From Ottowia flava (GTDB taxonomy: Bacteria > Pseudomonadota > Gammaproteobacteria > Burkholderiales > Burkholderiaceae_C): a stretch of 64,000 nt of DNA. Shown in pieces: positions 23,575 through 51,781 of this stretch (its first letter is position 1; each line of letters opens with the position of its first letter). Both the position numbers and the translations under genes were made by a program. Location of the stretch: NCBI RefSeq assembly GCF_008017535.1, contig NZ_VRUA01000015.1:1-64000 (forward strand). Direction: 5' to 3'. Under the pieces are notes generated by a model, which made no database searches, had not been told where the DNA came from, and saw nothing but the letters and a program-made list of their open reading frames with translations.

Positions 23575-24289
23575 GGGCGCCCCCGGCAGGCGCCTGCGGC
23601 GCAGCGGCCTCGGGCAAGGTAGGTAAATCGTTGCATAGGACCGATGGTGCCACACCGGGGGCCTCAACGGCCGCTTCACCTGTGCGTTCCCGTCCTGTCA
23701 ACGGGGTGGTCGCCGCAGCTTGCGAATTTTCAACAGAATTGGCCTCCAGCCCTACACCCATCTGCGCTGGCAGCTCCTCTTTTTGAAGCTTTTCAGCGCC
23801 ATCCCCGCCGCGCAGCTGGCCCGTGTCAACCTCGCCTTCGGGCGCGTCAACCAGGTTCATGAAGCGTGCGCTCGCCAGCTGACCCAGCATGCTGGCGGGC
23901 ATTGGCGTCGGGTTGGAGTAATCGTCGATATAGATATCGAGCCCGTCCATCACGTTGAAGTGCGGGTCGGAAAACAGCTTGCGCATCGCCGCGTTGCGCA
24001 CCTCGGGCGAAACCGAGCGCGCCACGAAGGCGCTGTAATCCGACTCGCGCGTGAGCTTCGCCACGTCCTGCCGCGTCAGTTCGGGCGGTGCCTCGGCCGG
24101 TGGCGCATCTGCAGCGGGCGCCGCCGGCGTCAGCGCCGCGACCGCGCCGTCATCAGGGCGCTGTCCGACTGCTGGCACGGCAGGCGCGGCGGTTGCGGGT
24201 TCAGCACGCGCCGGCTCCTGCAGCACCTGCCCTTCACGCGCGCCCTGCTTGCGCCGCGACCAGCGACCCAGAAATCCTTCATCCGCCAT
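23501..24289 (-). CDS. DUF3306 protein with in-frame repeat, extended C-terminus
   Basis: 262 residues from ATG 24289 (MADEGFLGRWSRRKQG). The conserved DUF3306 part covers residues 1 to about 160: FLGRWSRRK, then a Pro/Ala linker, then LTRESDYSAFVARSVSPEVR and DGLDIYIDDYSNP. Repeat R8 supplies residues about 167-188 (KLQKEELPAQMGVGLEANSV). About 75 further residues after it look out of character, and the last 24 are encoded inside the start of the next gene in another frame. The repeat insertion may have removed or displaced the original stop codon. Function of the family is unknown; it accompanies formate dehydrogenase genes. Confidence 0.82.
   Translation of the reverse strand: MADEGFLGRWSRRKQGAREGQVLQEPARAEPATAAPAVPAVGQRPDDGAVAALTPAAPAADAPPAEAPPELTRQDVAKLTRESDYSAFVARSVSPEVRNAAMRKLFSDPHFNVMDGLDIYIDDYSNPTPMPASMLGQLASARFMNLVDAPEGEVDTGQLRGGDGAEKLQKEELPAQMGVGLEANSVENSQAAATTPLTGRERTGEAAVEAPGVAPSVLCNDLPTLPEAAAPQAPAGGAHADADLRLQQHDAAGRPAHRPGTE
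23725..23791 (-). repeat. Dispersed repeat copy R8, inside DUF3306 gene
   Basis: In-frame copy in the sense direction: GAGCTGCCAGCGCAGATGG, GTGTAGGGCTGGAGGCC. It is read in a frame that turns TGTAGGGC into GGT-GTA-GGG, which avoids the TAG. Confidence 0.88.
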
Positions 24290-24887
24290 GCGAAGCCCCT
24301 CCACTGCCGCCGCCACCACGGCGCTTTTCGCCAGTGGACACGCGCGCCGGGTTGCCAAAGCGGTCCTGCAGCGGCTGAAAGCTTTGCGGCCGCGCGCGGC
24401 GCTTGGGCTCGGCCTGGTAGTGGGCCCGCGCAAACGCGCTGATCCAGTCCACCACGTCGGGGGTTGCCGGCACCTGCTCGACCGTTTCCTGCGCGTCCAG
24501 CCAGCGGCCCGCGTCGTGGTAACTCAGGCTCACCGCCTGAGGCTGCGGGAAGGGCTCGCCGTCCGGCCCGTCTTCCATGCGCCACATCACGAACCAGCCG
24601 GGCGCGGGCGACGAGGCGTTCAGGTAATAGCCTTCGGCGTCGTCGCGGTAGAGCGTGACGCAAAAGCCCGGGAAGACCCAACTGGCGCCGCTGTCGTTGT
24701 CCACCAAAAGGCGCGGTGCGTCGCCGTGCTGCGGCTGCTGGGGCACCACATCGTCCAGCACCCAGCGCCACGCCTGCCACCGCGCGGCAGCGCCATGGTT
24801 GGCCACGCGGCGCATCAGCACCGAGACGTTAACGGTGGGGCGGCCCGGGGTGTTCGTGGCCGCGAGGGCTTGATCTGGCAATGTCAC
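24279..24887 (-). CDS. DUF3305 protein of the formate dehydrogenase cluster
   Basis: 202 residues. The family-typical start VNVSVLMRRVANHGAAARWQ is followed by WRWVLDDVVP and FPGFCVTLYRDDAEGYYLN. WFVMWRMEDG and RWLDAQETVEQVP follow. The C-terminus is a Gly-rich tail (GGGGSGGASHGG). DUF3305 and DUF3306 almost always occur together beside formate dehydrogenase, but their biochemical role is not known to me. It overlaps the DUF3306 start by 11 nt and is the first gene of the accessory unit. Confidence 0.88.
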   Translation of the reverse strand: MTLPDQALAATNTPGRPTVNVSVLMRRVANHGAAARWQAWRWVLDDVVPQQPQHGDAPRLLVDNDSGASWVFPGFCVTLYRDDAEGYYLNASSPAPGWFVMWRMEDGPDGEPFPQPQAVSLSYHDAGRWLDAQETVEQVPATPDVVDWISAFARAHYQAEPKRRARPQSFQPLQDRFGNPARVSTGEKRRGGGGSGGASHGG

Positions 24888-24971
24888 CAGACCATTATCG
24901 GCCGCGGCGAATGCATCGGCCCGGGTGGGTGTTTGTGCCTGCGCGCGCGCTGAGTGCGCAGGCGTGGCGAC

Positions 24972-25709: not shown

Positions 25710-25733
25710 ACGGTGATGTCCAGTCGATGCAAT

Positions 25734-25792
25734 GGTTTTGATAGCTGGCCGCGCAGATCCCCGTAGGGCCAGCGGCCGATTTCGTTCAAATT
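25734..25792 (+). repeat. Dispersed repeat copy R9
   Basis: Clear intergenic copy between the enoyl-CoA hydratase and acyl-CoA ligase genes: GATAGCTGGCCGCGCAGAT, GTAGGGC, GCGGCCGATTTCGTTCAAAT. Confidence 0.9.
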
Positions 25793-25806
25793 TGGTGCAA
25801 TTCCGA

Positions 25807-31887: not shown

Positions 31888-32715
31888 TCAACCGCCCGCT
31901 GGCCCGCCGGACCCGTGCACGCCCTCGTCGGGCGCTTCCAGTGACTGCTGCGCCATCTCCTCTTCGCCGACCCACGGCGTGGCGCGTGCCAACGCCATCC
32001 AGGTACCAAAGGGCAGCCGCTCGATGGCGCGCTGCGGCGCGCGGCGCAAGGCGTGCAGGCGTTCGCCGTCCCATTGCAGCACGCCGCATTCGGGCGGTAC
32101 TTCTTCGGGCTGGGCGATCGGGCGGCCGCGCGCGTCCAGGCCCAGCACGTACCAGCAAGCGCCACCCATCTGCAGGTAGGCAGCGCGCTTGTGCGGGCGC
32201 CGCAGGTCGCCCAGCAGGTCGGCGCGGCTAACCTTGATCTCGTGCACGACGGGCTCCAGGTACGCCTCGACGCTGGTGTGGCGCACGGAAAAAACGTCGG
32301 GCTGCGCCACCACCCAGCGCACGGGTGCTGCGTCCGGCGTTGCCTCAATCACTGTATTTTCAATAGCTGTCTGCGCAGATTCATCTAGGGCCGGCGCCAC
32401 ATTTTCTTCAGATTTTGGCAAAGGCACGCGCAACGCAATGCCGCGCCACACCAGACGCCCCGCCGCACACTGGGCCTGCGCCACACGCTGCACCAGCGCT
32501 TCGTGTGCGCTGAGCGCCTGCCGGTTGCCCACCGCGCCGTCGCGGATCGCGCGCAGGCCAGCGTCGGTCACACGCAGCGTGTCGCCACCTTGCGCGGCGG
32601 GCATGCGCTCGAGCAGCCCTGCCGCCAGCAACTCGACCTCCAGTACATCCTGAAACGGCCATCCGGCCGACCGGTACATGGCGCGCAGGCGTTGCTGGTG
32701 GCGACGGGTAAGCAT
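31888..32715 (-). CDS. MmcB-like putative PD-(D/E)XK nuclease
   Basis: 275 residues. The C-terminal half contains QPDVFSVRHTSVEAYLEPVVHEIKVSRADLLGD (key residues: D of QPDVF, E and K of HEIKVSRADLL), then KRAAYLQMGGACWYVLG. This is the pattern of PD-(D/E)XK nucleases, and closest by eye to the MmcB DNA-repair family. The N-terminal 90 residues form helices without a recognised domain. Repeat R10 lies in frame at residues about 101-121 (KSEENVAPALDESAQTAIEN) between the two parts, as a linker. The assignment is moderate. Confidence 0.65.
   Translation of the reverse strand: MLTRRHQQRLRAMYRSAGWPFQDVLEVELLAAGLLERMPAAQGGDTLRVTDAGLRAIRDGAVGNRQALSAHEALVQRVAQAQCAAGRLVWRGIALRVPLPKSEENVAPALDESAQTAIENTVIEATPDAAPVRWVVAQPDVFSVRHTSVEAYLEPVVHEIKVSRADLLGDLRRPHKRAAYLQMGGACWYVLGLDARGRPIAQPEEVPPECGVLQWDGERLHALRRAPQRAIERLPFGTWMALARATPWVGEEEMAQQSLEAPDEGVHGSGGPAGG
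32352..32415 (+). repeat. Dispersed repeat copy R10, inside MmcB-like gene
   Basis: In-frame copy, antisense to the host gene: CAATAGCTGTCTGCGCAGAT and TCTAGGGCC are kept. The encoded ALDESAQTAIEN matches the pattern of R12 (ALQPHAQPAIEF) and R13 (AGAATAQPAPD). Confidence 0.85.
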
Positions 32716-33216: not shown

Positions 33217-36147
33217 TCAGTGCGCGAACGTCGCGGGCTGCGGCGGCATATGGCCAGCAGGCAGCACACGCACCGCGCAATACTTGAACTCGGGAATCTT
33301 GCCGAACGGGTCCAGCGCGGCGTTGGTCAGCAAATTGGCCGCCGCCTCGCGGTAGGCAAACGGGATGAACACGCTGCCGACCGGCGTGCCGTCGTCGCGG
33401 CGCACGGTCAACGTCACCTCACCACGGCGCGACTGCACGCGCGCCTGGCCACCCGCCGTCAGCCCCAGGCGCGCCAGGTCGTCGCCATGCATCGACACCG
33501 TGGGCGACGGCTCCAGCGCGTCCAGCACGCTGGCGCGCCGCGTCATGGCGCCGGTGTGCCAGTGCTCCAGCTGGCGGCCGGTGATCAGCACCATGGGGTA
33601 GTCGGCGTCGGGCCGCTCGGCCGCGGGGATGATGTCGGCCGGCACCAGCTGCACACGACCGTTGGCGGTGGGCACGCCGTCGGTGAAGACGATCGGCTGG
33701 CCCGGGTCGGCCTCGTCCAGGCAGGGGTAGGTAACGCTGCTTTCGCGCGTCAGTCGGTCCCAGGTGATGCCGGCAATCGCGCCGTGCATGGCGCGCCGCA
33801 TCTCGTCGTACACCGCGGCCACGCCGTGGTACGTGGGCGATGTGGTTTCAAGCGAAATCGGCTTCTGACCCTCACCCAGATTGCGCAGCCAGCTACTGTT
33901 TTCATAGTCCCATGGCAGACCCAGGCGCGTGGCCAGCTGCTGGATGATCCACAGGTCGGCACGCGCCTCGCCCGGTGGCTGCAAGGCCTGCAGGCCCAAC
34001 TGCACCATGCGGTCGGTGTTGCTCACGGTGCCGGTCTTTTCGGGCCAGGCGCTGGCCGGCAGGATGACGTCGGCCAGCCAGGCGGTTTCGGTCAAGAAGA
34101 TGTCTTGCACCACCAGGTGCTGCAGGCTGGCCAGCGCGTGGCGCGCGTGGTTCAGGTCGGGGTCGCTCATGGCCGGGTTCTCGCCCATGATGTACATGCC
34201 GCGCACCTTGTGCGGGTCGCTGTCGTCGGCCAGCGCCTTGTGCATGATTTCAACGACGGTGTAGCCGGGCGTCTCGTCCAGCTTCGTGTCCCAAAAATCC
34301 TCAAACCACGCGTGCGCGGCACCGTTGTCCACGCGCTGGTAGTTGGGGAACATCATCGGGATCAGGCCCGCGTCGCTGGCGCCTTGCACGTTGTTCTGGC
34401 CGCGCAGCGGGTGCAGGCCGGTGCCCGGGCGGCCGATCTGGCCGGTGCAGGTGGCCAGCGCGATCAGGCAGCGCACGTTGTCGGTGCCGTGCACGTGCTG
34501 GCTGACGCCCATGCCCCACAGGATGATGCTGCTCTTGGCCGTGGCGTAGGCGCGCGCCACTTCGCGCAGCGTGGCGGCCGGAATGCCGCAGATCGGCGCC
34601 ATGGCTTCCGGGCTGTAGCCCTGCACGTTGGCGACCAGCGCCGCGTAGTTGTCGGCGCGCTCGCGGATGAAGGCTTCGTCCACCAGCCCCTCTTCCACGA
34701 TGACGTGCAGCAGCGCGTTCAGCATGGCGACGTCGGCGCTGGGCTTGAAGGGCAGCACGCGCCAGGCGTGGCGCGCGATATCGGTCACGCGCGGGTCGGC
34801 CAGCACGATCTTGGCGCCGCGCTGCGCCGCGTTCTTCATCCACGTCGCGGCCACCGGGTGGTTGGCCGTAGGGTTGGAGCCGATGATGAAGATCAGCTCG
34901 GCCTCTGCCACGTCGCGCACCGGGTTGCTGACCGCGCCCGAGCCCACGCCTTCCAGCAGCGCGGCCACGCTGCTGGCGTGGCACAGGCGCGTGCAGTGGT
35001 CGACGTTGTTGCTGCCAAAGCCGGTGCGCACCAGCTTCTGGAACAGGTAGGCCTCTTCGTTGCTGCCCTTGGCGCTGCCGAAACCGGCGAGCGACTTGGG
35101 GCCATGCGACGTTTTCAGATCGCGCAGGCCACCAGCAGCCAGGTCCAGGGCTTCTTCCCACGTGGCTTCGCGGAAGACCTCGCGCCAGTCGGGCGCGGCT
35201 TCGCAGTGCGCCACGTCTTTCGGCGCATCGGCGCGTCGGATCAGCGGGCGCGTCACGCGGTCGGGGCTGGCCACGTAGTCGAAGCCGAAGCGCCCTTTGA
35301 CGCACAAGCGACCTTCGTTGGCCGGGCCGCCGCGGCCGCTGACGCTGACGATGCGCTCGTCCTTCACCTTGTAGGTGATCTGGCAGCCGACGCCGCAGAA
35401 GGGGCAAACCGAATCGACCGCGCGGTCCACGCTTTGCGCACCCAGTTGCGTCTTGGGCATCAGCGCGCCGGTCGGGCAGGCCTGCACGCACTCGCCGCAG
35501 GCCACGCAGGTGCTGGCGCCCATCGGGTCGTCCAGGTCGAACACGATGCGCGCGTGGCTGCCGCGGCCGGCGTAGCCGATCACGTCGTTGACCTGCGCTT
35601 CGCGGCAGGCGCGCACGCAGCGCGTGCACTGGATGCAGGCGTCCAGGTTGACGGCCATGGCGGGATGGCTCAAGTCGGGCGCGGGTTCTTCGCGGCGCAG
35701 CGCCGCCAGCGCCGGGCGCACCTGCACGCCTTCGCGCGCGGCCCATTGGCTCAGCTCGCCGTGCGGCTCGGCGGGGTTGTCGTCCAGCCATTTGTGGCCT
35801 GCCTGAGGGACGTCGGCCAACAGCAACTCGATCACCATCTGCTGGCTGCGGCGCGCGCGTTCGCTGCTGGCGCTGACCTTCATGCCCGGCTGTACCGTGC
35901 GGCAGCAGCTGGGCGCCAGCGTGCGCTCGCCCGCCACCTCGACCACGCAGGCGCGGCAGTTGCCGTCGGGGCGCAGGCCGTCGGTGAAGCAAAGGCGCGG
36001 GATGTCGACGCCGTGGCGCTCGGCCGCTTTCAGAATGGTTTCGCCCGCGTGCGCGTGCACGGCGCGGCCATCGAGTTCAAATTCGATAGCTGGCTGCGCG
36101 TGTGGCTGTAGGGCTGCAGGCTGATTTTGTTCTAAAACGCTGCTCAT
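33217..36147 (-). CDS. fdsA: NAD-dependent formate dehydrogenase alpha subunit
   Basis: 976 residues from ATG 36147, overlapping the upstream gene stop as ATGA. N-terminal [2Fe-2S] domain (CFTDGLRPDGNCRACVVE, residues 53-70), His/Cys [4Fe-4S], then two ferredoxin clusters (CIQCTRCVRACRE, CVACGECVQACPTG). A NuoG-like [4Fe-4S] (CPFCGVGCQITY, residue 248 on) precedes the molybdopterin domain. Active-site Cys is in DHCTRLCHAS (residue 389), so not selenocysteine. The protein is cytoplasmic (no signal). Two repeats are in frame: R12 makes residues 4-23 (VLEQNQPAALQPHAQPAIEF) and R11 makes about 747-767 (YENSSWLRNLGEGQKPISLE). Confidence 0.95.
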   Translation of the reverse strand: MSSVLEQNQPAALQPHAQPAIEFELDGRAVHAHAGETILKAAERHGVDIPRLCFTDGLRPDGNCRACVVEVAGERTLAPSCCRTVQPGMKVSASSERARRSQQMVIELLLADVPQAGHKWLDDNPAEPHGELSQWAAREGVQVRPALAALRREEPAPDLSHPAMAVNLDACIQCTRCVRACREAQVNDVIGYAGRGSHARIVFDLDDPMGASTCVACGECVQACPTGALMPKTQLGAQSVDRAVDSVCPFCGVGCQITYKVKDERIVSVSGRGGPANEGRLCVKGRFGFDYVASPDRVTRPLIRRADAPKDVAHCEAAPDWREVFREATWEEALDLAAGGLRDLKTSHGPKSLAGFGSAKGSNEEAYLFQKLVRTGFGSNNVDHCTRLCHASSVAALLEGVGSGAVSNPVRDVAEAELIFIIGSNPTANHPVAATWMKNAAQRGAKIVLADPRVTDIARHAWRVLPFKPSADVAMLNALLHVIVEEGLVDEAFIRERADNYAALVANVQGYSPEAMAPICGIPAATLREVARAYATAKSSIILWGMGVSQHVHGTDNVRCLIALATCTGQIGRPGTGLHPLRGQNNVQGASDAGLIPMMFPNYQRVDNGAAHAWFEDFWDTKLDETPGYTVVEIMHKALADDSDPHKVRGMYIMGENPAMSDPDLNHARHALASLQHLVVQDIFLTETAWLADVILPASAWPEKTGTVSNTDRMVQLGLQALQPPGEARADLWIIQQLATRLGLPWDYENSSWLRNLGEGQKPISLETTSPTYHGVAAVYDEMRRAMHGAIAGITWDRLTRESSVTYPCLDEADPGQPIVFTDGVPTANGRVQLVPADIIPAAERPDADYPMVLITGRQLEHWHTGAMTRRASVLDALEPSPTVSMHGDDLARLGLTAGGQARVQSRRGEVTLTVRRDDGTPVGSVFIPFAYREAAANLLTNAALDPFGKIPEFKYCAVRVLPAGHMPPQPATFAH
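33845..33908 (-). repeat. Dispersed repeat copy R11, inside fdsA
   Basis: In-frame copy, sense direction: AACAGTAGCTGGCTGCGCAA and AGAAGCCGATTTCGCTTGAAA (33845 end). It encodes ENSSWLRNLGEGQKPISLET in the third possible sense frame. Confidence 0.85.
36078..36138 (+). repeat. Dispersed repeat copy R12, N-terminus of fdsA
   Basis: In-frame copy, antisense to fdsA, directly after the start codon: TCGATAGCTGGCTGCGCGTG, GTAGGGCTGCAGG. Encodes LEQNQPAALQPHAQPAIEFE just before the [2Fe-2S] domain. Confidence 0.88.
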
Positions 36148-37985
36148 GCGCCCTGCTCCTGTGCGCCGCCGACTTCGTGCGCGAAATAGCGTTGCACACT
36201 GCGCACCGGGTTGGGCGCAGCCTGGCCCAAGCCGCAGATGGAGGCGTCGGCCATCACGGTGTTCAGGTCTTCCAACGTAACGTTGTCCCACTGCGGCGAC
36301 TCCATCAGCAGCGCCGCCTTCGCCGTGCCGACGCGGCAAGGTGTGCACTGGCCGCAGCTTTCGTCGGCGAAGAACCGCATCATCGACAGCGCCGCGTCGC
36401 GCGCGCGGTCCTGGTCGCTGAGCACGATCACCGCCGCACTGCCGATGAAGCCGCCGTGCGGCTGCAGTGTGTCGAAGTCCAGCGGCACGTCGGCCAGGCT
36501 GGCCGGGAAGATGCCGCCGCTGGCGCCGCCGGGCAGGTAGGCGTAGAGCTGGTGGCCCTCGGCCATGCCGCCGCAGTGTTCGTCGATCAGCTCGCGCAGC
36601 GTGATGCCGGCCGGGGCCAGCTTCACGCCCGGCTCACGCACGCGCCCGCTGACGCTGAAACTGCGCAGGCCTTTGCGCCCGTGGCGGCCGTGGCCGGCAA
36701 ACCAGTCCGGCCCCCGCGTCAGGATGTCGCGCAGCCAGTGCAGCGTTTCCATGTTGTGCTCCAGCGTGGGGCGGCCGAACAGGCCGATCTCGGCGATGTA
36801 GGGCGGGCGCAGGCGCGGCTCGCCGCGTTGGCCCTCCACGCTTTCGATCATGGCGCTTTCTTCACCGCAGATGTACGCCCCCGCGCCGCGCCGCAGCTCG
36901 ATCGGCGGCACCGGCAGGTCCAGCGCGGGCGCGGCGGCCTGCAAATCCGCAATGGCGCGGCGCAGGATGGCGTGGCATTCGGGGTATTCGTCGCGCAGGT
37001 AGATGTAGATCGCCTGGCAGCCCACCACCTGCGCGGTGATCAGCGCGCCTTCCAGAAAGCGGTGCGGGTCGCGTTCCAGGTAGTAACGGTCTTTGAAGGT
37101 GCCGGGCTCGCCTTCGTCGATGTTGATGGCCAGCACGCCGAAGGCGCCGGGCGCGGCGCCAGACGGCGTGATGGGCCAACCCGGCAGTGGCGCGACCGGC
37201 TGCTGCGCGTGCCGCTCGGCGAGCGCCCGCACGAAATCGCGCACGATGCGCCACTTGCGCCCGGTGGGAAAGCCTGCGCCGCCCAGACCGCGCAGACCGC
37301 CGTGGTCCAACGCTTGCAACACGGCGTCGTGGCCCAGCTCGCCGCGCGCCACGCGCTGCGCGGTGGCGTAGCCGCCGTCCGCTTGGTACGCCGCCATCGC
37401 TATCACATCAGGAGCTGGTTGCGCAGTTGCAGCACCGGCTGCAGCCGCTTTCTTTACCAAATCCTCCAGAACGGCGGCACTGGCATGGCCGATGCCTTGG
37501 GTCTGTCCGTCCACCGTCAGCAGCGCGGCGGGCGCCTGCTCGCAGCGGCCCATGCAGGGGCCTCGCAGCACCCGCACGTCTTTCCCGGCATCGGCGCCCA
37601 GCGCGTCGGTCAGGCGCGCGATCAGCGCTTCGGCACCCGCCAACTGGCAGCTGAGCGAATCGCACACGCGCAGGGTGACGCGCGCGGGCGTGGCGTCGTC
37701 CTTCAGCACTTCAAAGTGGTGGTAGAAGGTCGCGACCTCGTACACCTCGGCCATGCCCAGGCGCATCAGCGCGGCCAGCGCAACCAGGTGGCGTTCAAAC
37801 AAGCCGCCATGGCGGTCGTTCAACCGGTGCAGGTATTCGATCAGCAGGTCGCGGCGGTAGCCTTCCGCGGGCGGCTCGCCGATCAGCGCGACGACGTCTT
37901 CGCGCGCGGCATCCGTCGGCTGGCGCCCCTTGAGCTGGTGGCGCGGGCGTCGCGGATGAATTTTGATGCTTGTCTCCGTGGGCAT
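36144..37985 (-). CDS. Formate dehydrogenase fused gamma-beta (NuoE-NuoF type) diaphorase subunit
   Basis: 613 residues from ATG 37985 (MPTETSIKIHPRR); an ATG 9 bp upstream is also possible. Residues 1-170 are NuoE/FdsG-like, with [2Fe-2S] cysteines in CDSLSCQ and CMGRCEQAP. Residues from about 200 are NuoF/FdsB-like: FMN/NADH binding in GLGGAGFPTGRKW, GEPGTFKDR, GAYICGEESAMIES, and [4Fe-4S] in ESCGQCTPCRVGT. It passes electrons from FdsA to NAD+. The two halves are joined by an Ala/Pro linker that matches repeat R13. No FdsD-like gene is seen next to fdsA. Confidence 0.93.
   Translation of the reverse strand: MPTETSIKIHPRRPRHQLKGRQPTDAAREDVVALIGEPPAEGYRRDLLIEYLHRLNDRHGGLFERHLVALAALMRLGMAEVYEVATFYHHFEVLKDDATPARVTLRVCDSLSCQLAGAEALIARLTDALGADAGKDVRVLRGPCMGRCEQAPAALLTVDGQTQGIGHASAAVLEDLVKKAAAAGAATAQPAPDVIAMAAYQADGGYATAQRVARGELGHDAVLQALDHGGLRGLGGAGFPTGRKWRIVRDFVRALAERHAQQPVAPLPGWPITPSGAAPGAFGVLAINIDEGEPGTFKDRYYLERDPHRFLEGALITAQVVGCQAIYIYLRDEYPECHAILRRAIADLQAAAPALDLPVPPIELRRGAGAYICGEESAMIESVEGQRGEPRLRPPYIAEIGLFGRPTLEHNMETLHWLRDILTRGPDWFAGHGRHGRKGLRSFSVSGRVREPGVKLAPAGITLRELIDEHCGGMAEGHQLYAYLPGGASGGIFPASLADVPLDFDTLQPHGGFIGSAAVIVLSDQDRARDAALSMMRFFADESCGQCTPCRVGTAKAALLMESPQWDNVTLEDLNTVMADASICGLGQAAPNPVRSVQRYFAHEVGGAQEQGA
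37402..37461 (+). repeat. Dispersed repeat copy R13 (diverged), diaphorase linker
   Basis: The weakest in-frame copy: GGAGCTGGTTGCGCAGTTG, CCGGCTGCAGCCGCTTTC. Support comes from the reading frame: AAAAGAATAQPAPDVI sits in the same register as R10 and R12. Confidence 0.6.
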
Positions 37986-38302
37986 GACATGCATTATTGT
38001 GCAAATAAGCAGGTAGTGGTGGGATTTGCGCGACGGTCCGCTCGTTTCCCAAGGCAGGGCTCGCAAGATGACTGTACCGAGGACGCTCGCAACGGGCTCA
38101 GGGTACCGGAACGAAGAGCCTTCGGTGCGCCATGCCGAGAGAAATGGTCACGCGTTGGCCGCACCGCCACCTTTTCGCCCAGCCGAAGTGAGCGCCAGCG
38201 CCTCCAGCGCGCCGCAACCGGCGCAAGGATGCCCCGCGACGGTCCGGACGGCCGCTGCGACAGGTCATACTGGCATCTCCCACAACACCGAGGAGACAAG
38301 CC
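37986..38302. other. Intergenic region between divergent formate dehydrogenase and ABC binding-protein genes
   Basis: 317 bp without a gene. It must hold the promoters of both divergent genes. An AT-rich stretch TGCATTATTGTGCAAATAAGC (37990-38011) lies just before the diaphorase start and is the best candidate for its -10 region. I see no repeat copy and no clear operator. Confidence 0.45.
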
Positions 38303-39214
38303 ATGAACCGAACGCTAGGCGTCAGCCCCATGAAATGGATCGCCGCCCTGTGTCTTTCCGCACTCGCCGTCGGTGCACACGCGCAGGGCGCGGGCGGCAC
38401 GCTGGAGAAGATCCGCAGCAGCGGCAAGGCCGTGATCGGCGTGCGCGAAGCTTCGCCGCCCATGGCCTATGCGCTGGGCGCGCACGAGAAGTTCACGGGC
38501 TACCACGTTGAACTGTGCGAGCGCATCCTGCGCAAGCTGGCGCCGCAGGCCAAGTTCGAATACTTCGCGATGACGCCGCAGAACACCATGCCGCTGGTGC
38601 AGAACGGCACCGTGGACATCGGCTGTGGCCCGGCCACCAACACGCTGGTGCGTCAGCAGCAGGTGGCGTTTGCCGTCACCACCTACATCAGCCAGGTCCG
38701 CATGGCCGTGCGCGCCGACTCCGGCATCACCGAATGGAAGCAGCTGGACGGCAAGACCGCGTCGGCCACCACCGGCACCACCGCCGTGCAGCTGCTGCGC
38801 AAGCTGGAACGCGACCTGAACATCAAGGTCAACGTCGCGCAGCAGAAGGACAACATCGAAAGCCTGCTATCGGTGGAGACCGGCCGCGCGGTGGCCTTCG
38901 TGCTGGACGACAACCTGCTGGCCGGCATCGTGGCCAACTCGCGCGACCCCAAGCAGTTCCGCCTGGTCGGCACCTCGCTGCAGTCCGAGCCCATCGCCAT
39001 CCTGTTCCGCAAGGACGACCCGGCTTTCAAGCAGGCGGTGGACGCCGAGCTGAAGGCCATGACGGCGTCGGGCGAGATGGCCAAGCACTACGACAAGTGG
39101 TTCATGCAGCCCATCCCGCCGCGCAACACCAGCCTGAACCTGCCGCTCAGCGACGCCCTGAAAGCGCTGTTCGCCAAGCCCAACGACGAGCCCCTGGAAA
39201 GCTACAACAAATAG
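38303..39214 (+). CDS. ABC transporter substrate-binding protein, amino acid type
   Basis: 303-residue periplasmic binding protein (SBP_bac_3 family, GltI-like) with signal peptide WIAALCLSALAVGAHA. Core blocks are SSGKAVIGVREASPPMAYAL, YHVELCERILRKL, NGTVDIGCGPATNT and DGKTASATTGTTAVQLLRKL. Relatives bind glutamate/aspartate. RBS GAGGAG is 8 nt before the ATG. No permease or ATPase is encoded next to it; the following gene is a ureG relic on the other strand. The stop codon TAG is the first triplet of repeat R14. Confidence 0.92.
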   Translation: MNRTLGVSPMKWIAALCLSALAVGAHAQGAGGTLEKIRSSGKAVIGVREASPPMAYALGAHEKFTGYHVELCERILRKLAPQAKFEYFAMTPQNTMPLVQNGTVDIGCGPATNTLVRQQQVAFAVTTYISQVRMAVRADSGITEWKQLDGKTASATTGTTAVQLLRKLERDLNIKVNVAQQKDNIESLLSVETGRAVAFVLDDNLLAGIVANSRDPKQFRLVGTSLQSEPIAILFRKDDPAFKQAVDAELKAMTASGEMAKHYDKWFMQPIPPRNTSLNLPLSDALKALFAKPNDEPLESYNK

Positions 39215-39260
39215 AGCTGCCAGCGAAGGTGGCTGTAGGGCCTGCGGCCGATCAGGCTTG
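39203..39260 (+). repeat. Dispersed repeat copy R14 joining two gene ends
   Basis: ATAGAGCTGCCAGCGAAGG, GGCTGTAGGGC and GCGGCCGATCAG are kept. Its TAG is the stop codon of the binding-protein gene and its GATCAG contains the stop (TGA, minus strand) of the ureG relic. The repeat thus forms the ends of two convergent reading frames. Confidence 0.82.
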
Positions 39261-39684
39261 CAGCAGGCCTTTCTGCTCGATGAACTGGATGACCTCCTGC
39301 AGACCACTCTGGGTCTTCAGGTTGGTCATGACGAAGGGCTTCATGCCCTGCGGCGTGCTGCGCATGCGCTCGGTGTCGCTCTTCATCACGTCGAGGTTGG
39401 CGCCCACATGCGGCGCCAGGTCGGTCTTGTTGATGACGAACAGGTCGCTCTTGGTGATGCCGGGGCCGCCCTTGCGCGGAATCTTCTCGCCCGCCGCGAC
39501 GTCGATCACGTAGATCGTCAGATCGCTGAGTTCCGGGCTGAAGGTGGCGGCCAGGTTGTCGCCGCCACTTTCGACGAAGACGATGTCGGCATCGGGAAAC
39601 TCGCCCAGCATGCGGTCGATGGCCTCCAAGTTGAGGACGCGTCCTCTCGAATCGCCGTGTGCGGGCAGCCGCCCATTTGCACGG
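39252..39684 (-). pseudogene. ureG: Urease accessory GTPase UreG, truncated and frameshifted
   Basis: The C-terminal two thirds of UreG are readable: [38 protein letters not shown] and [18 protein letters not shown]. Upstream, [13 protein letters not shown] is in another frame; restoring one base near 39634 (TCC-ATC-AAC-TTG) would rejoin it as [12 protein letters not shown]. The N-terminal GTP-binding P-loop part is missing: before 39684 the sequence is unrelated. No other urease gene is in the window. The gene is therefore a relic of a lost urease cluster. Confidence 0.88.
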
Positions 39685-39900: not shown

Positions 39901-41451
39901 ATGCCCTACCGCCTGGACCTGAACTGCACGCAACCGCTGTTCGACGTGGCGGCCACGCGCCGCTTGGAACAGGCGGCCATGGCGGCGCTGCCGGCAAACA
40001 CGCTGATGCAGCGCGCAGGTCTGGCCGTGGCGCGGCTGGCGCTGGCCGTGGCGCCGCACGCGCGCACGGTGTGGATCGCGTGCGGGCCGGGCAACAACGG
40101 CGGCGACGGGCTGGAGGCGGCCCTGCACCTGCAGCGCTGGGGGAAGGCGCCTTGGGTTACCTGGGCCGGCGACCCGGAGCGCGCGCCAGCAGACGCACGC
40201 GCGGCCTGGGCGCGGGCACAGGCGGCCGGTGTGCGGCTGGCCGATGCGCCGCCGCCTTTGTCGGCGCTGGGGCCGCAGGACTTGTGCGTGGACGCGCTGC
40301 TGGGCATTGGCGCGGCGCGGCCGGTAAGCGGACGGATGGCCGAGTGGCTGGCGCACATGGCGGCCAGCGCGGCGACGCGCCTGGCGGTCGATGTGCCGAG
40401 CGGATTGAACGCCGACACGGGCATATTCTCCGCACCGGATACTCCTGAAATCGTAGCTGTCTGCGCAAGCAGCACTAGGGCCATCGGCATTTTTGATTCA
40501 TATTCTCGGCGCCACACGCTGAGCCTGCTAACGCTCAAACCCGGCCTGTTCACCGCCGACGGGCGAGACGCTTGCGGACATCTGTGGCACGACGACCTGG
40601 GCGTCGCTGCCGACGAAGCGCCAACGGCTTGGCTGAACGGCGCGCCGGCCGCCGCCGTGCGGCCGCACGCCAGCCACAAGGGCACGTTTGGCGACGTGGC
40701 GGTGATCGGCGGTGAAGTGGACGCCGCCGGTGGCATGGCGATGGCGGGCGCTGCCCTGCTGGCTGGCCGCGCGGCGCTGCACGCGGGCGCGGGGCGCGTT
40801 TACGACAGCCTGCTGAATCAGTCACCGCACGGTGCCGCGCCGCTGCTGGACGTGACGCAGCCCGAATTGATGTTCCGCTGCGTCGAATTGCTGGACCTGC
40901 CGCACCTCACCGTCGTCTGCGGCTGTGGCGGCGGTGACGCAGTGGCGGGCGTGCTGCCGGCCGTGCTGGCGCAGGCCGCGCGCCTGGTGCTGGACGCCGA
41001 TGGCCTGAACGCCGTGGCGGCCGACGCGGCCCTGCAGCGCGCGCTGCGCGAGCGGGCGGCGCACGCCCATCAACCCACCGTGCTGACCCCGCACCCGCTG
41101 GAGGCCGCGCGCCTGCTGGCCACCACCACCGCCGACGTGCAGCGCGACCGACTGGCGGCGGTGCAGGCCTTGGCCAAGCGCTTTGGCGCGGTGGTCGTGC
41201 TGAAGGGCAGCGGCAGCGTGATCGCCGCGCCGGGCACCGCGCCTCGCATCAACCCCACCGGCAACGCGCGTCTGGCCACCGGCGGCACGGGCGACGTGCT
41301 GGCTGGCCTGGTCGGTGCGCGCTTGGCGGCGGGCGCGGACGCTTTCGGCGCCGCTTGCGCGGCCGTGTACCAGCACGGCGCGGTGGCGGATGCGTGGCCA
41401 GTGGGTCAGACCTTGACGGCCAGCGCGCTGGCGCAAGCGCTGAAGGCGTGA
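39901..41451 (+). CDS. nnrD: Bifunctional NAD(P)H-hydrate epimerase/ADP-dependent dehydratase
   Basis: Repairs hydrated NADH/NADPH: the N-terminal YjeF_N domain (residues 1 to about 230) epimerises, the C-terminal carbohydrate-kinase-like domain dehydrates using ADP. Landmarks are GPGNNGGDGLEAALHL, DVPSGLNADTG, VDALLGIG in the first domain and HASHKGTFGDVAVIGG, NPTGNARLATGGTGDVLAGL in the second. Repeat R15 adds about 20 residues (EIVAVCASSTRAIGIFDSYS, residues 182-201) between DVPSGLNADTGIFS and the strand HTLSLLTLKPGLFT. 516 residues in total. Confidence 0.94.
   Translation: MPYRLDLNCTQPLFDVAATRRLEQAAMAALPANTLMQRAGLAVARLALAVAPHARTVWIACGPGNNGGDGLEAALHLQRWGKAPWVTWAGDPERAPADARAAWARAQAAGVRLADAPPPLSALGPQDLCVDALLGIGAARPVSGRMAEWLAHMAASAATRLAVDVPSGLNADTGIFSAPDTPEIVAVCASSTRAIGIFDSYSRRHTLSLLTLKPGLFTADGRDACGHLWHDDLGVAADEAPTAWLNGAPAAAVRPHASHKGTFGDVAVIGGEVDAAGGMAMAGAALLAGRAALHAGAGRVYDSLLNQSPHGAAPLLDVTQPELMFRCVELLDLPHLTVVCGCGGGDAVAGVLPAVLAQAARLVLDADGLNAVAADAALQRALRERAAHAHQPTVLTPHPLEAARLLATTTADVQRDRLAAVQALAKRFGAVVVLKGSGSVIAAPGTAPRINPTGNARLATGGTGDVLAGLVGARLAAGADAFGAACAAVYQHGAVADAWPVGQTLTASALAQALKA
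40445..40506 (+). repeat. Dispersed repeat copy R15, inside nnrD
   Basis: In-frame sense copy: AATCGTAGCTGTCTGCGCAA, ACTAGGGCCATCGGCATTTTTGATTCA (40471-40500 region). Read as GTA-GCT-GTC-TGC-GCA, the same frame as R17 and R18; TAGGG becomes ACT-AGG. Confidence 0.85.
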
Positions 41452-42256: not shown

Positions 42257-42264
42257 GAAACCCT

Positions 42265-42332
42265 CATTTCAAGCAAAAACGGCCTGCAGCGCTACAACCA
42301 CCTGCGCGACCAGCTACTCACTTCATAGCGAA
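42265..42332 (-). repeat. Dispersed repeat copy R16
   Basis: Among the best-preserved copies: GAGTAGCTGGTCGCGCAGG, GGTTGTAGCGC, GCAGGCCGTTTTTGCTTGAAA. It lies just upstream of the SDR start, same direction, with the ribosome binding site at its border. Confidence 0.92.
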
Positions 42333-42406
42333 ACGTGTCGCCATCCAAGCGACGCTGCAGCGGCCAGCGGCCCAGCGATGCACCGCACGGCGCGCGCCAC
42401 CGTACC

Positions 42407-44846: not shown

Positions 44847-44857
44847 AAATTTGATGA

Positions 44858-44888: not shown

Positions 44889-44895
44889 CAATGCT

Positions 44896-44931
44896 GCCGC
44901 CTTGTTCTGACGAACGGGGCGGCTTTTTTTT
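44896..44931 (+). terminator. Second tandem terminator
   Basis: GCCGCCTTGTTC, loop TGAC, GAACGGGGCGGC (two G-U pairs) followed by eight T. Directly follows the first terminator, giving tandem termination after tRNA-Leu. Confidence 0.8.
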
Positions 44932-45267: not shown

Positions 45268-46689
45268 TCAGATCGGCACCGCCACCAGGTCGTGCCCTTG
45301 CGTGCCGACGATGCGCGCACGGGTGAATTCGCCTACCTTCATTTGCTTGCTGAGCTTTTCGGGCGGCAGCAGCTGCACCACGCCGTCGATCTCCGGTGCG
45401 TCGGCGTAGCTGCGCCCGACTCCGCCCTTGCGGCCCTGGGCCGGTGCCGAATCGACCAGCACCTGCATCGTCGCGCCGACACGATCGCGCAGCTTGGCGG
45501 TGGACACGGCTTCGGCCACTTCCATGAAGCGGGCGCGGCGCTCTTCGCGCAGCTCGGCCGGCAACATGCCGGGCAAGTCGTTCGCGGTGGCGCCTTCAAC
45601 GGGCGAATAGGCGAAGCAGCCGGCGCGGTCGATGCGGGCTTCGCGCACGAAGTCGAGCAGGTGCTCAAACTCGGCTTCGGTCTCGCCCGGAAAGCCGGCG
45701 ATGAAGGTAGAGCGCACGACCAGCTCAGGGCAGATCTCGCGCCAGCGCGCCAGGCGCTCCAGGTTTTTCTCGCCGCTGGCCGGGCGCTTCATGCGGCGCA
45801 GCACGTCGGGGTGGCTGTGCTGAAAGGGCACGTCCAGGTAAGGCAGCACACGGCCTTCGGCCATCAACGGCAGGATCTCGTCGACGTGCGGGTACGGGTA
45901 AACGTAGTGCAGACGCACCCAGGCGCCGTGCGGCTCGGCCAGCTCGGACAGCGCTTGCACCAATTCGAGCATGCGCGTCTTGACCGGGCGACCGTCCCAG
46001 AAGCCGGTGCGGTACTTCACGTCGACGCCGTAGGCCGAGGTGTCCTGGCTGATCACCAGCAGCTCTTTCACGCCGCCTTCAAACAGCGCGCGCGCCTCCT
46101 TCAGCACATCGCCGATCGGGCGGCTGACCAGGTCGCCGCGCATCGACGGGATGATGCAGAAGGTGCAGCGGTGGTTGCAGCCCTCGCTGATCTTCAAATA
46201 AGCGTAGTGGCGCGGCGTGAGCTTCAGGCCCGCTTCGCCAAAGGCGCCAGGCACCAGGTCGATGAAGGGGTCGTGCGGCTTGGGCAGGTGCTGGTGCACC
46301 GCGTCCATCACCTCCTGCGTGGCGTGCGGGCCGGTGACGGCCAGAACGGACGGGTGCAGGCTGCGCACCAGATTTTCATCGTCTTTTTGTCGTTCCGCCC
46401 TAGAACCATCAGCGCGACCAGCTATCGTTTTTGCACCAAGGCAACCGGTGACAATGACTTTGCCGTTGACCGACAAGGCCTCGCCGATGGTGTCCAGGCT
46501 TTCCTTGACGGCCTCGTCGATGAAGCCGCAGGTGTTGACGATGACGAGGTCAGCGCCTTCAAAGGTCTTGCTGGTGGCGTAGCCCTCGGCCGACAACTGG
46601 GTCAGGATCAGTTCGGAGTCGGTCAGCGCTTTCGGGCAGCCCAGGCTGACAAATCCGATGCGCGGGGCCGGCGTGGTGGTTTCACTCAT
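45268..46689 (-). CDS. rimO: Ribosomal protein uS12 methylthiotransferase RimO, with repeat insertion
   Basis: 473-residue radical-SAM enzyme that methylthiolates an Asp of ribosomal protein S12. Domains: UPF0004 with [17 protein letters not shown] and VTGCLGA (three cluster Cys); radical SAM with [16 protein letters not shown]-terminal TRAM ([24 protein letters not shown], in pieces). The normal distance from VTGCLGA to [16 protein letters not shown] is filled with an extra segment, residues about 86-107 ([20 protein letters not shown]), encoded by repeat R17. It lies on a loop right after the third cluster cysteine, so the protein is probably still active. Confidence 0.96.
46370..46434 (-). 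repeat. Dispersed repeat copy R17, inside rimO
   Basis: In-frame sense copy: ACGATAGCTGGTCGCGCTGA, GGTTCTAGGGC. Read as ATA-GCT-GGT-CGC-GCT-GAT-GGT-TCT-AGG-GCG, the same frame as R15 and R18. Confidence 0.87.
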
Positions 46690-46740
46690 CCCGCGATTGT
46701 CGCAGCCTGGGCCCCGCTGCGCTGCCGCTGGTGCGAGTCT

Positions 46741-47355: not shown

Positions 47356-47554
47356 TCTAGACGGCCAACCCCAGCCGCCTCGCCATGGCTAACCCTGATG
47401 TTAAAAGTGCTGAAAGTACGCGCAGTTGCGTGATTTTCAGTTGCGATGAGGCGCCCCAGCAAGGTAGGTCAACGCCCCGACAGCCTCGCCGCTTGCTGCG
47501 CCGCACACGGTCGCAGCCTTCCGGCGAGGGCTCGCCCAGCGACCGGGCCATCGC

Positions 47555-48751: not shown

Positions 48752-48815
48752 GCGCCGATTGTGCCGCCTGAACCACCGCGGCTGCGGTGCGCCATGGCGT
48801 CAGACATAAGAAAAA

Positions 48816-48841
48816 CCCCGGCAGCGCATGCGCTGCCGGGG
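48816..48841 (-). terminator. Rho-independent terminator of acnA
   Basis: Perfect 10-bp stem CCCCGGCAGC / GCTGCCGGGG with a GCATGC centre, followed on the minus strand by TTTTT. It lies 27 bp after the acnA stop codon. Confidence 0.9.
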
Positions 48842-48868
48842 CATAGGCAAGGCGTGCCCGATGGCCCG

Positions 48869-51781
48869 TCAGGCCAACAACTGCCGCAGCACGTAGGGCA
48901 GGATGCCGCCGGCGCGGAAGTAGTCGACCTCGATCGGCGTGTCGATGCGCAGCGTCAGCGAAGCTTCGTCCTTGGTGCCATCGGCGCGCGTGATCACCAG
49001 ACGCGCGTCGCTTTGCGGCGTCAGTTGCTCGTCGCAGACGATCTCAACCAGCTCGTCGCCCTTCAGCCCCAGCGATTCCCAGGATTCGCCGGCCTTGAAC
49101 TGCAGGGGCAGCACGCCCATGCCCACCAGGTTGCTGCGGTGGATGCGTTCGAAGCTCTTGGCGACCACGGCCTTGATGCCCAGCAACTGCGTGCCCTTGG
49201 CGGCCCAATCGCGGCTGGAGCCGGTGCCGTACTCCTCGCCTGCGAACACCACCGTGGGCACGCCTGCGGCGATGTACTTCATGGCCGCGTCGTAGATGTA
49301 CTGTTTGGTGCCCTGCAGCGCGCCGGGTTGCTGGAACAGCGTGAGGCCGCCCTCTTCGCGGCTGCCGCTTTCCAGCGGCGGCAGCATCAGGTTCTTGATG
49401 CGCACGTTGGCGAAGGTGCCGCGCATCATGACTTCGTGGTTGCCGCGGCGCGCGCCGTAGCTGTTGAAGTCGGCCTTCTGCACGCCGTGGTCCAGCAGCC
49501 ACTGGCCCGCGGGCGAACTGTCCTTGATGCTGCCGGCGGGCGAGATGTGGTCGGTGGTGATGCTGTCGCCGAACAGCGCCATGATGCGGGCGCCGCTCAC
49601 GCGATGGGCATCATTTTGGCCGCCAGCCCCTGTCAGATCTGCGCGGGCAGCTCCTGATTCGTTAGCAAAATCGGCAAAGAACGGCGGCTCGGCAATGTAC
49701 GTGCTGGTGGGCCAGTTGTAGACCTGCCCGGTCACGCCCTCGATGCGCTCCCACAGCTTGCCCGGCTCGGTCGCGACCTTGGCGTAGTTCTCGCGGAAGG
49801 CCTTGCCCTTCATCGCGTACTTCAGCAGCTTGTTGATCTCGTCGCTGGTCGGCCAGATGTCGCCCAGGAACACATCCTTGCCGCCTTTGCCCTTGCCCAC
49901 GGGCTGGGTCATCAGGTCGACCATCATGTTGCCGGCAATGGCGTACGCCACCACCAGCGGCGGGCTGGCCAGGAAGTTGGCCTTCAGGTTCGGGTGGATG
50001 CGCGCCTCGAAGTTGCGGTTGCCCGACAGCACGGCCGCGGCCACCAGTTCGTTGCGGGTGATGGCCTCGTTGATCTCGGGCGCCAGGTCACCCGCGTTGC
50101 CGATGCAGGTGGTGCAGCCGTAACCGGCCACGGCAAAGCCCAGCTTTTCCAGGTAGGGCAGCAGGCCGGTTTCGGTCAGGTACTCGGTGACGATGCGCGA
50201 GCCGGGGGCCAGCGAGGTCTTGACGTGCGGCTTGACGGTCAGCCCCGCCTGCACCGCCTTCTTGGCCAGAAGACCGGCGGCCAGCAGCACGCTGGGGTTG
50301 CTGGTGTTGGTACAGCTGGTGATGGCGGCAATCAGCACGTCGCCGTTGCCCAGCGAGTATTCGCTGACCGAGATCGGCTCGACCACATCGGCCTCGGCCA
50401 GCGCGGCGGCCAGCGTCGACTTGTTGGCCACCATTTCGACCATGGCGCGCGGCGCGCCCAGCGGCGTGGGCGCCTCGGCCGGTGCGCGCTCGTCCGCATC
50501 CGGCACGTTGTCGCGCGTGACGTGCACGCGGGTGTGCAGCAACTCGGCCGGGCGGTTGAAGCCGTTGTCGCTCATCGGCTTGGAGAACAGCTCGACAAAC
50601 TGGCGCGAGACGTTGCCCAGCTCGATGCGGTCTTGCGGGCGCTTGGGGCCAGCGAGGCTCGGGGCCACGGTGCCCAGGTCCAGCGTGATGACCTGCGAAT
50701 AGTCGATTTCGCCCGCCTTGGGGATGCCGAACAGCTTCTGCGCCTTGAAGTAGGCCTCGAACGCGTCGATCTCGGCCTTGGTGCGGCCCGTGCCCTGGAA
50801 GTACTCGATGGTGCGCTCGTCCACCGGGAAGAAGCCCATGGTTGCGCCGTATTCGGGCGCCATGTTGCCGATGGTGGCGCGGTCGGGCAGGCTGAGCGTG
50901 CGCGTGCCTTCGCCGAAGAATTCGACGAACTTGCCGACAACCTTGTGCTGGCGCAGGATCTCGGTCACCGTCAGCACCAGGTCGGTGGCGGTGCAGCCTT
51001 CGCGCAGGCGGCCTTTCAGCTCAAAGCCCACCACATCGGGCGTGAGGAAGTACACCGGCTGACCCAGCATGGCGGCTTCGGCCTCGATGCCGCCCACGCC
51101 CCAACCCACCACGCCGATGCCGTTGATCATGGTGGTGTGGCTGTCGGTGCCGACCAGGGTGTCGGGGTAGTACACGCCGTCGGCGCGCTTGTGCACGCCG
51201 CGCGCCAGGTATTCCAGGTTGACCTGGTGCACGATGCCGAAGCCCGGCGGCACCACGCCGAAGGTGTCAAACGCCTGCATGCCCCATTTCATGAACTCGT
51301 AGCGCTCGCGGTTGCGCAGGAATTCGAGCTTCATGTTCAGGTCGAGCGCGTTCTTCTTGCCGTAGTAGTCGACCATGACCGAGTGGTCGACCACCAGATC
51401 CACCGGCACCAGCGGCTCGATCTTCTTGGGGTCCTTGCCCATCGCAGCGGCGGTCGAACGCATCGCCGCCAGGTCGGCCAGCAGCGGCACGCCAGTGAAG
51501 TCCTGCAGCACCACGCGGGCGACGGTGAAGGGAATCTCGTCGGTGCGGGCGGCCTTGGGCTGCCAGTTGGCGAGCTGGGCGACGTGCTCGGCGGTGACTT
51601 TCTTGCCGTCGCAGTGGCGCAGCACCGACTCCAGCACGATGCGCAGCGACACCGGCAGGCGCTTGATGTTGGGGTACTTGCGGGCCAGCGCGGGCAGCGA
51701 GTAGAGCTGACCGGTCTTGCCGGAGCCGAGCTTGAACGGTTGGCGGGTGGAAGCGAAAGCGTGGGATTTTTGGGTAGCCAT
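48869..51781 (-). CDS. acnA: Aconitate hydratase A, with repeat insertion
   Basis: Isomerises citrate to isocitrate with a [4Fe-4S] cluster, in the TCA and glyoxylate cycles. Start ATG 51781 (MATQKSHAF), RBS AGGA upstream; 970 residues, about 80 longer than E. coli AcnA. Cluster cysteines are in [13 protein letters not shown] and [12 protein letters not shown]; the swivel domain has [16 protein letters not shown] and [16 protein letters not shown]. Repeat R18 adds about 20 residues ([20 protein letters not shown], 705-724) in the linker between the catalytic core and the swivel domain, just before [17 protein letters not shown]. Confidence 0.96.
49609..49668 (-). repeat. Dispersed repeat copy R18, inside acnA
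   Basis: In-frame sense copy: TCAGGAGCTGCCCGCGCAGAT, AGGGGCTGGCGGCCAAAATG (49609-49668). Same frame as R15 and R17 (GGA-GCT-GCC-CGC-GCA-GAT). Confidence 0.82.

What the first reader, a model, noticed from the sequence alone, without database searches (positions are those of the whole stretch)
23725..49668. The repeat is read through as protein in preferred frames
Eight copies (R8, R10, R11, R12, R13, R15, R17, R18) sit inside open frames without breaking them. The repeat contains TAG triplets in one frame in each direction, so only some frames are open. All three antisense copies use the same frame (pattern A-L-x-x-x-A-Q-x-A-I-E); three of five sense copies share another (pattern I-A-x-x-A-D-x-x-R/G-A). 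That implies selection for frame and length. Rickettsia palindromic elements are the known precedent for repeats inserted in this way.
Basis: partly seen in the sequence, partly recalled or inferred. Interest (0 to 1): 0.85.

Follow-up and report, generated by a model that had tools for sequence, protein, structure and literature searches.

The report
Dispersed DNA repeat translated inside proteins
A short DNA repeat scattered through a bacterial genome, apparently of the Comamonadaceae, sits inside some genes without breaking them and adds about twenty amino acids to linkers of ordinary proteins, in reading frames that selection appears to have filtered.

Summary
The window has 20 copies of a ~60-nt repeat. 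The eight copies named lie in open frames of seven host ORFs: three read ..ALxxxAQxAI.. (frame A), three IA..AD..xA (frame D), two otherwise. Orthologues show in-frame insertions that coincide with the repeat (FdsA, YjeF, a DnaE2-like polymerase) or length-variable linkers that contain it (AcnA, FdsB).

In 1.264 Mb of the same genome, 242 of 293 copies are intergenic and 48 internal to genes. Stop codons explain frame D. They do not explain frame A: frame B is nearly as often stop-free but almost unused (strong sense copies of three genomes: 1 of 24 seen, 9.6 expected, P = 8.5e-5). Unused frames are rich in Cys/aromatic residues, so peptide-level selection is the likely filter.

No hairpin covariation was found in three species. 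The core is nearly invariant; copies stay in the same gaps between species while the centre follows a species consensus. RPEs and intragenic REPs are the precedents; this is a new variant. Its mover or binding protein is unknown.

The parts
23723..23796 (+). repeat copy R8, frame E, C-terminal read-through of the DUF3306 ORF
23501..24433 (-). host ORF with DUF3306 domain (residues 53-178)
32344..32418 (-). repeat copy R10, frame A (..VAPALDESAQTAIENTV..)
31888..32715 (-). host ORF of R10, no family match
33841..33910 (+). repeat copy R11, frame F, insert in FdsA between Molybdopterin and Molydop_binding domains
36075..36140 (-). repeat copy R12, frame A, N-terminal leader of FdsA if the ATG at 36147 is used
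33217..36147 (-). fdsA, formate dehydrogenase alpha subunit (host of R11 and R12)
37395..37464 (-). repeat copy R13, frame A, linker between NuoE-like and NuoF-like parts of FdsB
36144..38066 (-). fdsB, formate dehydrogenase beta subunit (host of R13)
40437..40508 (-). repeat copy R15, frame D, linker between YjeF_N and Carb_kinase domains
39901..41451 (+). bifunctional NAD(P)H-hydrate epimerase/dehydratase (host of R15)
46393..46441 (+). repeat copy R17, frame D, in RimO
45268..46689 (-). rimO (host of R17)
49603..49673 (+). repeat copy R18, frame D, between Aconitase and Aconitase_C domains
48869..51880 (-). acnA, aconitate hydratase (host of R18)
2426..2498 (+). intergenic copy
5435..5504 (+). 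weak copy, not found with the final model
7135..7200 (+). intergenic copy
8572..8644 (+). intergenic copy
11043..11114 (+). intergenic copy
13827..13903 (+). mostly intergenic copy, overlaps the end of the predicted gene at 13880-14719
20743..20816 (-). intergenic copy
25727..25796 (-). intergenic copy
39194..39263 (-). copy between convergent predicted genes
42264..42336 (+). intergenic copy, also present in the orthologous gap of genome G130, same orientation
51879..51946 (+). intergenic copy
53507..53581 (+). intergenic copy

Best explanation
The repeat is a ~55-70 nt asymmetric DNA element. It is mostly intergenic and rare in gaps between divergent genes. Some copies inserted into genes long ago and are kept where they add about 20 residues to interdomain linkers or loops in a readable frame; they are then inherited by descent (shown by orthologue alignments for several hosts). 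Two filters set the frame. First, stop codons close most of the other frames (shown). Second, purifying selection on the encoded peptide: frames rich in Cys/aromatic residues with poor helix propensity (B, F) are rejected, while Ala/Gln/Pro/Ser-rich (A) or Glu/Leu-rich (E) helix-compatible frames are kept (inferred from frame statistics). The insertion process itself need not be frame-aware (inferred).
For: Insert and repeat coincide. FdsA: 79 orthologues cover the site, 71 have at most a third of the insert's length (alignment). YjeF: 28 cover it, 13 lack it, 11 have two thirds or more; six of these loci have a repeat hit there, antisense, reading IA..A as in frame D. DnaE2-like polymerase, second site: frame A peptides (..AQAAI.. 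or similar) in L257, L258, L263, L266, L267, none in e.g. L265, L268, L269, L270. FdsB linker: 7 loci with a hit at E<0.01, 7 of 7 in frame A (Acidovorax, Polaromonas, Rhodoferax).

Frame bias, own genome: sense A 23, B 0, C 2 against stop-free intergenic copies A 168, B 142, C 46 of 229. Three genomes, strong copies: A 20, B 1, C 3 seen, 11.5/9.6/2.9 expected, P(B<=1)=8.5e-5; D 19, E 9, F 3 seen, 18.8/2.7/9.5 expected (from my counts on the lists).

Peptide filter: seen/expected per frame falls with Cys+Trp+Tyr+Phe content and with helix cost (Spearman -0.89 each, six frames), not with GC3 (-0.09).

Site filter: in FdsA (R11), FdsB, YjeF and AcnA the copy lies between Pfam domains; in RimO it starts at the last residues of one (UPF0004, 11-86) and ends before the next. 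The FdsB model dips to pLDDT 63 at residues 211-220.
Against: Some hits inside domains may be chance: UbiA, LysR, DAO and KsgA hits (19.5-26.4 bits) lie in Pfam matches with no extra length; even four stronger ones (SelO 43.5, TruB 41.1, amidase 37.0, PurK 29.2 bits) lie in matches not clearly longer than the profile. I set the bit cut-offs (35 own, 30 relatives) after seeing the lists. Copies are not all independent: one search finds 7 orthologous host genes with a copy in both own and a relative (YjeF, RimO, AcnA and others); none is among the strong sense copies by my check, but G130 was not compared with G015. The correlation has n = 6 and uses composition from the own genome only. Frame C is Leu-rich yet not depleted. 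In AcnA only 1 of 26 orthologues has a third or less of the insert, and at the first DnaE2 site 0 of 16; at the second only 5 orthologues met the coverage rule, 1 of them short. A target preference tied to codon phase would give the same bias. There is no translation evidence.
Confidence: 0.68

Rival explanations
1. Frame preference reflects stop codons alone; no selection on the peptide.
For: Antisense frame D: 18 of 23 internal copies, as the 170:33:20 stop-free counts predict.
Against: Sense frame B is stop-free in 142 of 229 intergenic copies but used by 0 of 25 internal copies in the own genome and by 1 of 24 strong sense copies over three genomes. In the two same-genus genomes frame F is about as often open as D (46 against 63, 42 against 39) yet rarely used, and E is over-used.
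Confidence: 0.1
2. The insertion machinery prefers a target whose position relative to codons is biased, so the frame is set at insertion.
For: The same frames recur in several genera.
Against: No precise junctions could be read because the linkers are diverged. It does not predict the link with Cys/aromatic content.
Confidence: 0.15
3. The element is a sequence-specific DNA site kept by selection or by an uptake-like drive (in the manner of DNA uptake sequences with dialects). In-gene copies are kept for the DNA site and the peptide is a by-product.
For: Core GCT intact in 180 of 180 and GCG nearly so in full-length own copies beside near-random positions; nearest neighbour at most 0.89 in the own sample. 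Copies picked by the left half alone carry AGCT in 137 of 140 and GCGC in 129 of 140. Gaps shared with G130: both 14, neither 17, G130 only 6, own only 0 of 37; 15 of 15 pairs (14 gaps) in the same orientation. The centre follows the species consensus in 15 of 15 G130 members and 13 of 15 own members, one own copy counted twice.
Against: The element is much longer than known uptake sequences and enters genes as an insertion. Orthologous elements are only slightly more alike than their flanks (0.73 against 0.69; random flanks 0.59). AcnA in G015 lost the motif but kept the length. Gap length is not controlled. In G015 only 4 of 6 shared pairs had the same orientation, and one G015 copy has an identical neighbour, so recent copying is not excluded there. 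Spacing is not more even than random.
Confidence: 0.3
4. REP-like element moved by a REP-associated tyrosine transposase (RAYT).
For: One RAYT gene in the own genome (NF047646, 82.3 bits against cut-off 80) with a copy 5 nt after its stop and another, in opposite orientation, about 0.7 kb upstream beyond a predicted gene. G130's RAYT has a copy on each side, one partial (E 4e-4), G072 and G010 one weak copy. Gaps occupied: convergent 66/122, tandem 128/408, divergent 17/162, like the REPs of PMC3733652.
Against: A RAYT match occurs in 40 of 40 family genomes tested (19 over the curated cut-off: 11 of 19 repeat-rich, 8 of 21 with few or no pattern matches). RAYTs of G004, G085 and G143 have no copy at E<=1 in their 4-kb stretch. 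At the repeat's density a flanking copy is not rare by chance. No hairpin covariation; few dimers (8 of 211 occupied gaps).
Confidence: 0.25

Closest known systems
Rickettsia palindromic elements (RPE)
   Same: Short repeat inserted in frame in many unrelated genes, read as peptide (passages of the review PMC10969869; the original papers were not read).
   Different: RPEs are given there as ~150 bp and are palindromic; this element is 55-70 nt and shows no base-pair covariation in three genomes. Most copies here are intergenic.
GTAG- and CGTC-tagged REPs inside ORFs (PMC3733652; abstract, section 15 and passages seen)
   Same: Mostly between convergent and co-directional genes; some inside genes. 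The paper lists DnaE2, tRNA synthetases and TruB among hosts; here hits lie in a DnaE2-like polymerase, TruB (41.1 bits) and, weakly, leucyl-tRNA synthetase (23.8 bits).
   Different: REPs are 20-40 bp stem-loops with a GTAG or CGTC tag, often dimers or clusters; here no covarying stem and few dimers.
Beta-proteobacterial repeat element BRE (PMC3110155; passages and section 14 read)
   Same: Dispersed repeat in Bordetella and Comamonadaceae, mostly intergenic, some entirely within coding sequences.
   Different: ~90 bp, average G+C 69% in Bordetella, at most 29 copies in a genome, tandem groups. Here the consensus is 50% G+C by my count, ~290 copies in 31% of the genome, few in tandem. BRE letters were not available, so homology is untested.
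DNA uptake sequences / USS and their dialects (PMC3630211, PMC2346458; passages seen)
   Same: Hundreds to thousands of copies, dialects between species, orientation or location bias inside genes.
   Different: Uptake sequences are about 9-12 bp (recalled; 8-12 bp in the passages); this is a ~60-nt insertion. No uptake data.

Membership tests
Rickettsia palindromic element | in-frame insertion into protein-coding genes | tested here: met
Rickettsia palindromic element | palindromic, hairpin-forming sequence | tested here: not met
   no Watson-Crick excess beyond noise over 180, 79 and 68 copies; RNAalifold on 80 copies finds only a 2-bp stem, -0.78 kcal/mol (column shuffles down to -0.16)
Rickettsia palindromic element | sequence relation to an RPE family | not tested
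   no RPE sequences fetched
REP (GTAG/CGTC) | 20-40 bp stem-loop | tested here: not met
   the G015 consensus does contain a dyad (GCGCTTG..CAAGCGC) but without covariation
REP (GTAG/CGTC) | terminal GTAG or CGTC tag | tested here: inconclusive
   the 3' end reads TAG or GAG with a variable first base; not a fixed tag
REP (GTAG/CGTC) | dimers or clusters | tested here: not met
   8 of 211 occupied gaps hold two or more copies
REP (GTAG/CGTC) | RAYT gene flanked by the repeat | tested here: inconclusive
   copy next to the RAYT in own, G130, G072 and G010, none in G004, G085, G143; RAYT match in 40 of 40 genomes regardless of repeat
BRE | sequence match to BRE | not testable with these tools
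   sequence only in a figure or supplement of PMC3110155
DNA uptake sequence | near-invariant core with species dialects | tested here: met
DNA uptake sequence | raises DNA uptake | not testable with these tools
   needs a transformation assay
Rfam RNA family | match at gathering score | tested here: not met
   only two tRNAs in the window; in 42000-54000 none of 7 matches at E<=5 overlaps a copy

The most novel reading that the evidence does not exclude
Roughly a thousand copies per genome (extrapolated from 31%) of a ~60-nt asymmetric DNA site, held at the same places and orientation across species by selection on the site, whose central 'dialect' is rewritten in concert in each species, and which leaves its translation as linkers inside polymerase, tRNA-modification and central-metabolism proteins. 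This would be an unknown genome-wide DNA-recognition system of Comamonadaceae.
Probability: 0.25. Interest if true: 0.85.

Novelty: new variant of a known kind. Interest (0 to 1): 0.6.

Why it matters
It gives a free-living, easily sequenced group in which the old RPE question, whether translated repeats are tolerated junk or selected peptide, can be tested by numbers: the intergenic copies of the same element serve as the neutral control. The conserved core and concerted centre also suggest a genome-wide DNA-recognition system that I did not find described (searches over the held open-access library only).

Tried and rejected
RNA hairpin or terminator: not supported as a conserved structure. 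Codon usage as cause of the frame bias: GC3 does not correlate and frame A has the lowest GC3. Even genome spacing: not found over 340 kb, 85 copies. Presence of a RAYT as the explanation of which genomes have the repeat: not discriminating. Phage carriage: no match among 50,697 phage records; 2 of 72,556 plasmid records matched, one Diaphorobacter copy supplying the stop of cobN. The FdsA model is poor (mean pLDDT 59.6); its low values at the insert (31-33) are only suggestive. Searches for a described Comamonadaceae repeat gave no paper that I could match to this element; the passages of PMC3164672 shown do not mention one.

Rows dropped: the strong-copy frame test leaves out own internal copies under 35 bits and relatives' under 30 bits, N- and C-terminal copies, opposite-strand duplicates in G130 and G015, and copies without an anchor base. 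The count of all internal sense copies is also (A 34, B 1, C 8 seen; 20.5/17.2/5.3 expected), one opposite-strand duplicate removed by me. The FdsB linker print came out empty, and the diagnostic-column identity for G130 is undefined (too few columns).


Full report
What is there. An iterated profile search finds 20 copies of a ~60-nt repeat in the window. The genome (4.12 Mb, 53 contigs) is unnamed; the nearest FdsA relatives are Variovorax, Acidovorax, Polaromonas and kin, so I take it for a member of the Comamonadaceae (inferred). In the window plus 60 stretches of 20 kb (1.264 Mb, 31%) classes 293 copies at E<=1e-3: 242 intergenic, 48 internal to predicted genes, 3 C-terminal, against a predicted coding fraction of 0.826. 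So genes are strongly avoided. Gene models are from my own simple finder.

The eight copies. Three copies on the strand of their gene (R10, R12, R13) use frame A, three on the opposite strand (R15, R17, R18) use frame D; R8 uses E and R11 uses F. The host ORFs are DUF3306, an unknown ORF, FdsA (two copies), FdsB, the YjeF-type enzyme, RimO and AcnA. R8 is a C-terminal read-through and R12 an N-terminal leader; the other six are internal.

Are they insertions? FdsA: of 79 orthologues that cover the site, 71 have at most a third of the insert's 23 residues and one (L076) has a longer, different insert. YjeF: of 28, 13 have a third or less and 11 two thirds or more; six loci have a repeat hit there, all antisense. 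A DnaE2-like polymerase elsewhere in the genome (my naming; a second, 1211-aa frame in the same genome matches it at 38%) has two copies. At the second, five loci of the genus carry frame A-like peptides while others go straight to the conserved RPAVRLGL; under the strict coverage rule 5 orthologues count, 1 short and 4 long. At the first, 0 of 16 is short. AcnA: frame D-like peptides across the genus and in G004; the six loci of other families (L176-L181) are about 10-16 residues shorter by my count, but only 1 of 26 falls under a third. RimO could be compared only with two loci of the genus, both with the peptide. FdsB: Acidovorax temperans, A. delafieldii, three other Acidovorax, a Polaromonas and a Rhodoferax locus have the repeat in the linker, 7 of 7 hits in frame A.

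Frame statistics. Intergenic copies give the neutral expectation. Stop-free counts in the own genome, of 229: A 168, B 142, C 46, D 170, E 33, F 20. Internal copies: sense A 23, B 0, C 2; antisense D 18, E 4, F 1. Same-genus genomes G130 and G015 (480 kb each, 151 hits each, opposite-strand duplicates included) behave alike. Pooled strong copies: A 20, B 1, C 3 against 11.5/9.6/2.9; D 19, E 9, F 3 against 18.8/2.7/9.5. Thus the preference for D is a stop-codon effect; avoidance of B and F and excess of A and E are not. Seven host genes are shared between own and a relative, so the pooled copies, antisense ones above all, are not all independent. Over the six frames, seen/expected falls with Cys+Trp+Tyr+Phe content and helix cost and not with GC3. 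I read this as purifying selection on the inserted peptide; a codon-phase bias at insertion is not excluded.

Doubtful rows. Several internal hits lie in Pfam matches of normal length (UbiA, LysR, DAO, KsgA at 19.5-26.4 bits; SelO, TruB, amidase, PurK at 29.2-43.5 bits). Some may be chance resemblance or replacements rather than insertions.

What the element is. It is asymmetric. Over 180 own, 79 G130 and 68 G015 full-length copies no pair of columns shows a Watson-Crick excess beyond noise (largest z 3.3, 2.2, 3.0). Information is concentrated in short blocks: GCT 180 of 180 and the two central bases of GCGC 179 of 180 each, beside nearly random columns; no two own copies are closer than 0.89, though one G015 copy has an identical partner. 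Copies picked by the left half alone still carry AGCT in 137 of 140 and GCGC in 129 of 140, so the core is not a product of the search. Gaps between convergent genes are occupied in 66 of 122, co-directional 128 of 408, divergent 17 of 162.

Between species. Of 37 conserved gaps between own and G130, 14 have a copy in both, 17 in neither, 6 in G130 only, 0 in own only (P = 6e-6); 15 of 15 pairs, in 14 gaps, have the same orientation. For G015: 6 both, 20 neither, 2 own only, of 28; 4 of 6 pairs same orientation. Gap length was not controlled. Yet 15 of 15 G130 members and 13 of 15 own members at these places (one own copy counted twice) match their own species' centre. Overall identity of the orthologous elements (0.73) is little above their flanks (0.69; random flanks 0.59). 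The pattern (place kept, core kept, centre rewritten by species) resembles the dialects of uptake sequences, or sites that follow a changing binding protein; none of this is proven.

Distribution. A strict core pattern occurs in 57 of 250 family genomes, with 3 matches in total for the reversed control; content is patchy within genera (78 against 0 in g152, 44 against 0 in g145). The pattern finds only 42 places in the own genome, so a zero does not prove absence. A RAYT gene exists in the own genome with a copy 5 nt behind it and one 0.7 kb upstream, but RAYT matches occur in 40 of 40 genomes tested, 19 over the cut-off, without a clear difference between rich and poor genomes.

Literature seen. 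PMC3733652 (abstract, section 15, passages): REPs inside ORFs, including DnaE2, TruB and tRNA synthetases, and the suggestion of linkers or loops. PMC10969869 (passages): review with RPEs. PMC3110155 (section 14, passages): BRE, some inside coding sequences. PMC3630211 and PMC2346458 (passages): uptake-sequence dialects and intragenic bias. PMC3164672 (passages): nothing on this repeat. The original RPE papers were not read (one not held).

Noticed in passing
window:42264-42336 and orthologous gaps of G130/G015: Copies keep place and mostly orientation between species while the centre of the element follows a species-wide consensus (concerted change).
   Followed up: partly
L019:9986-10684 (+), copies at L019:9215-9269 and 10689-10738: Single RAYT gene (NF047646) with a copy 5 nt after its stop codon and another, in opposite orientation, about 0.7 kb upstream.
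   Followed up: partly
window:27946-28935, 30771-31850, 56720-57700 (-): Three predicted genes sharing repeated DNA segments (families D2, D5, D7), probably paralogues; not identified.
   Followed up: no
L316:4001-4063 (Diaphorobacter plasmid NZ_CP049911.1): A plasmid copy of the repeat overlaps the end of annotated cobN and supplies its stop codon.
   Followed up: partly
family genomes: Counts of the strict core pattern differ from dozens to none between members of one genus, so the element may be gained or lost on that scale.
   Followed up: no
L030:9772-13467 (-): A DnaE2-like polymerase carries two copies in two different frames and orientations.
   Followed up: partly
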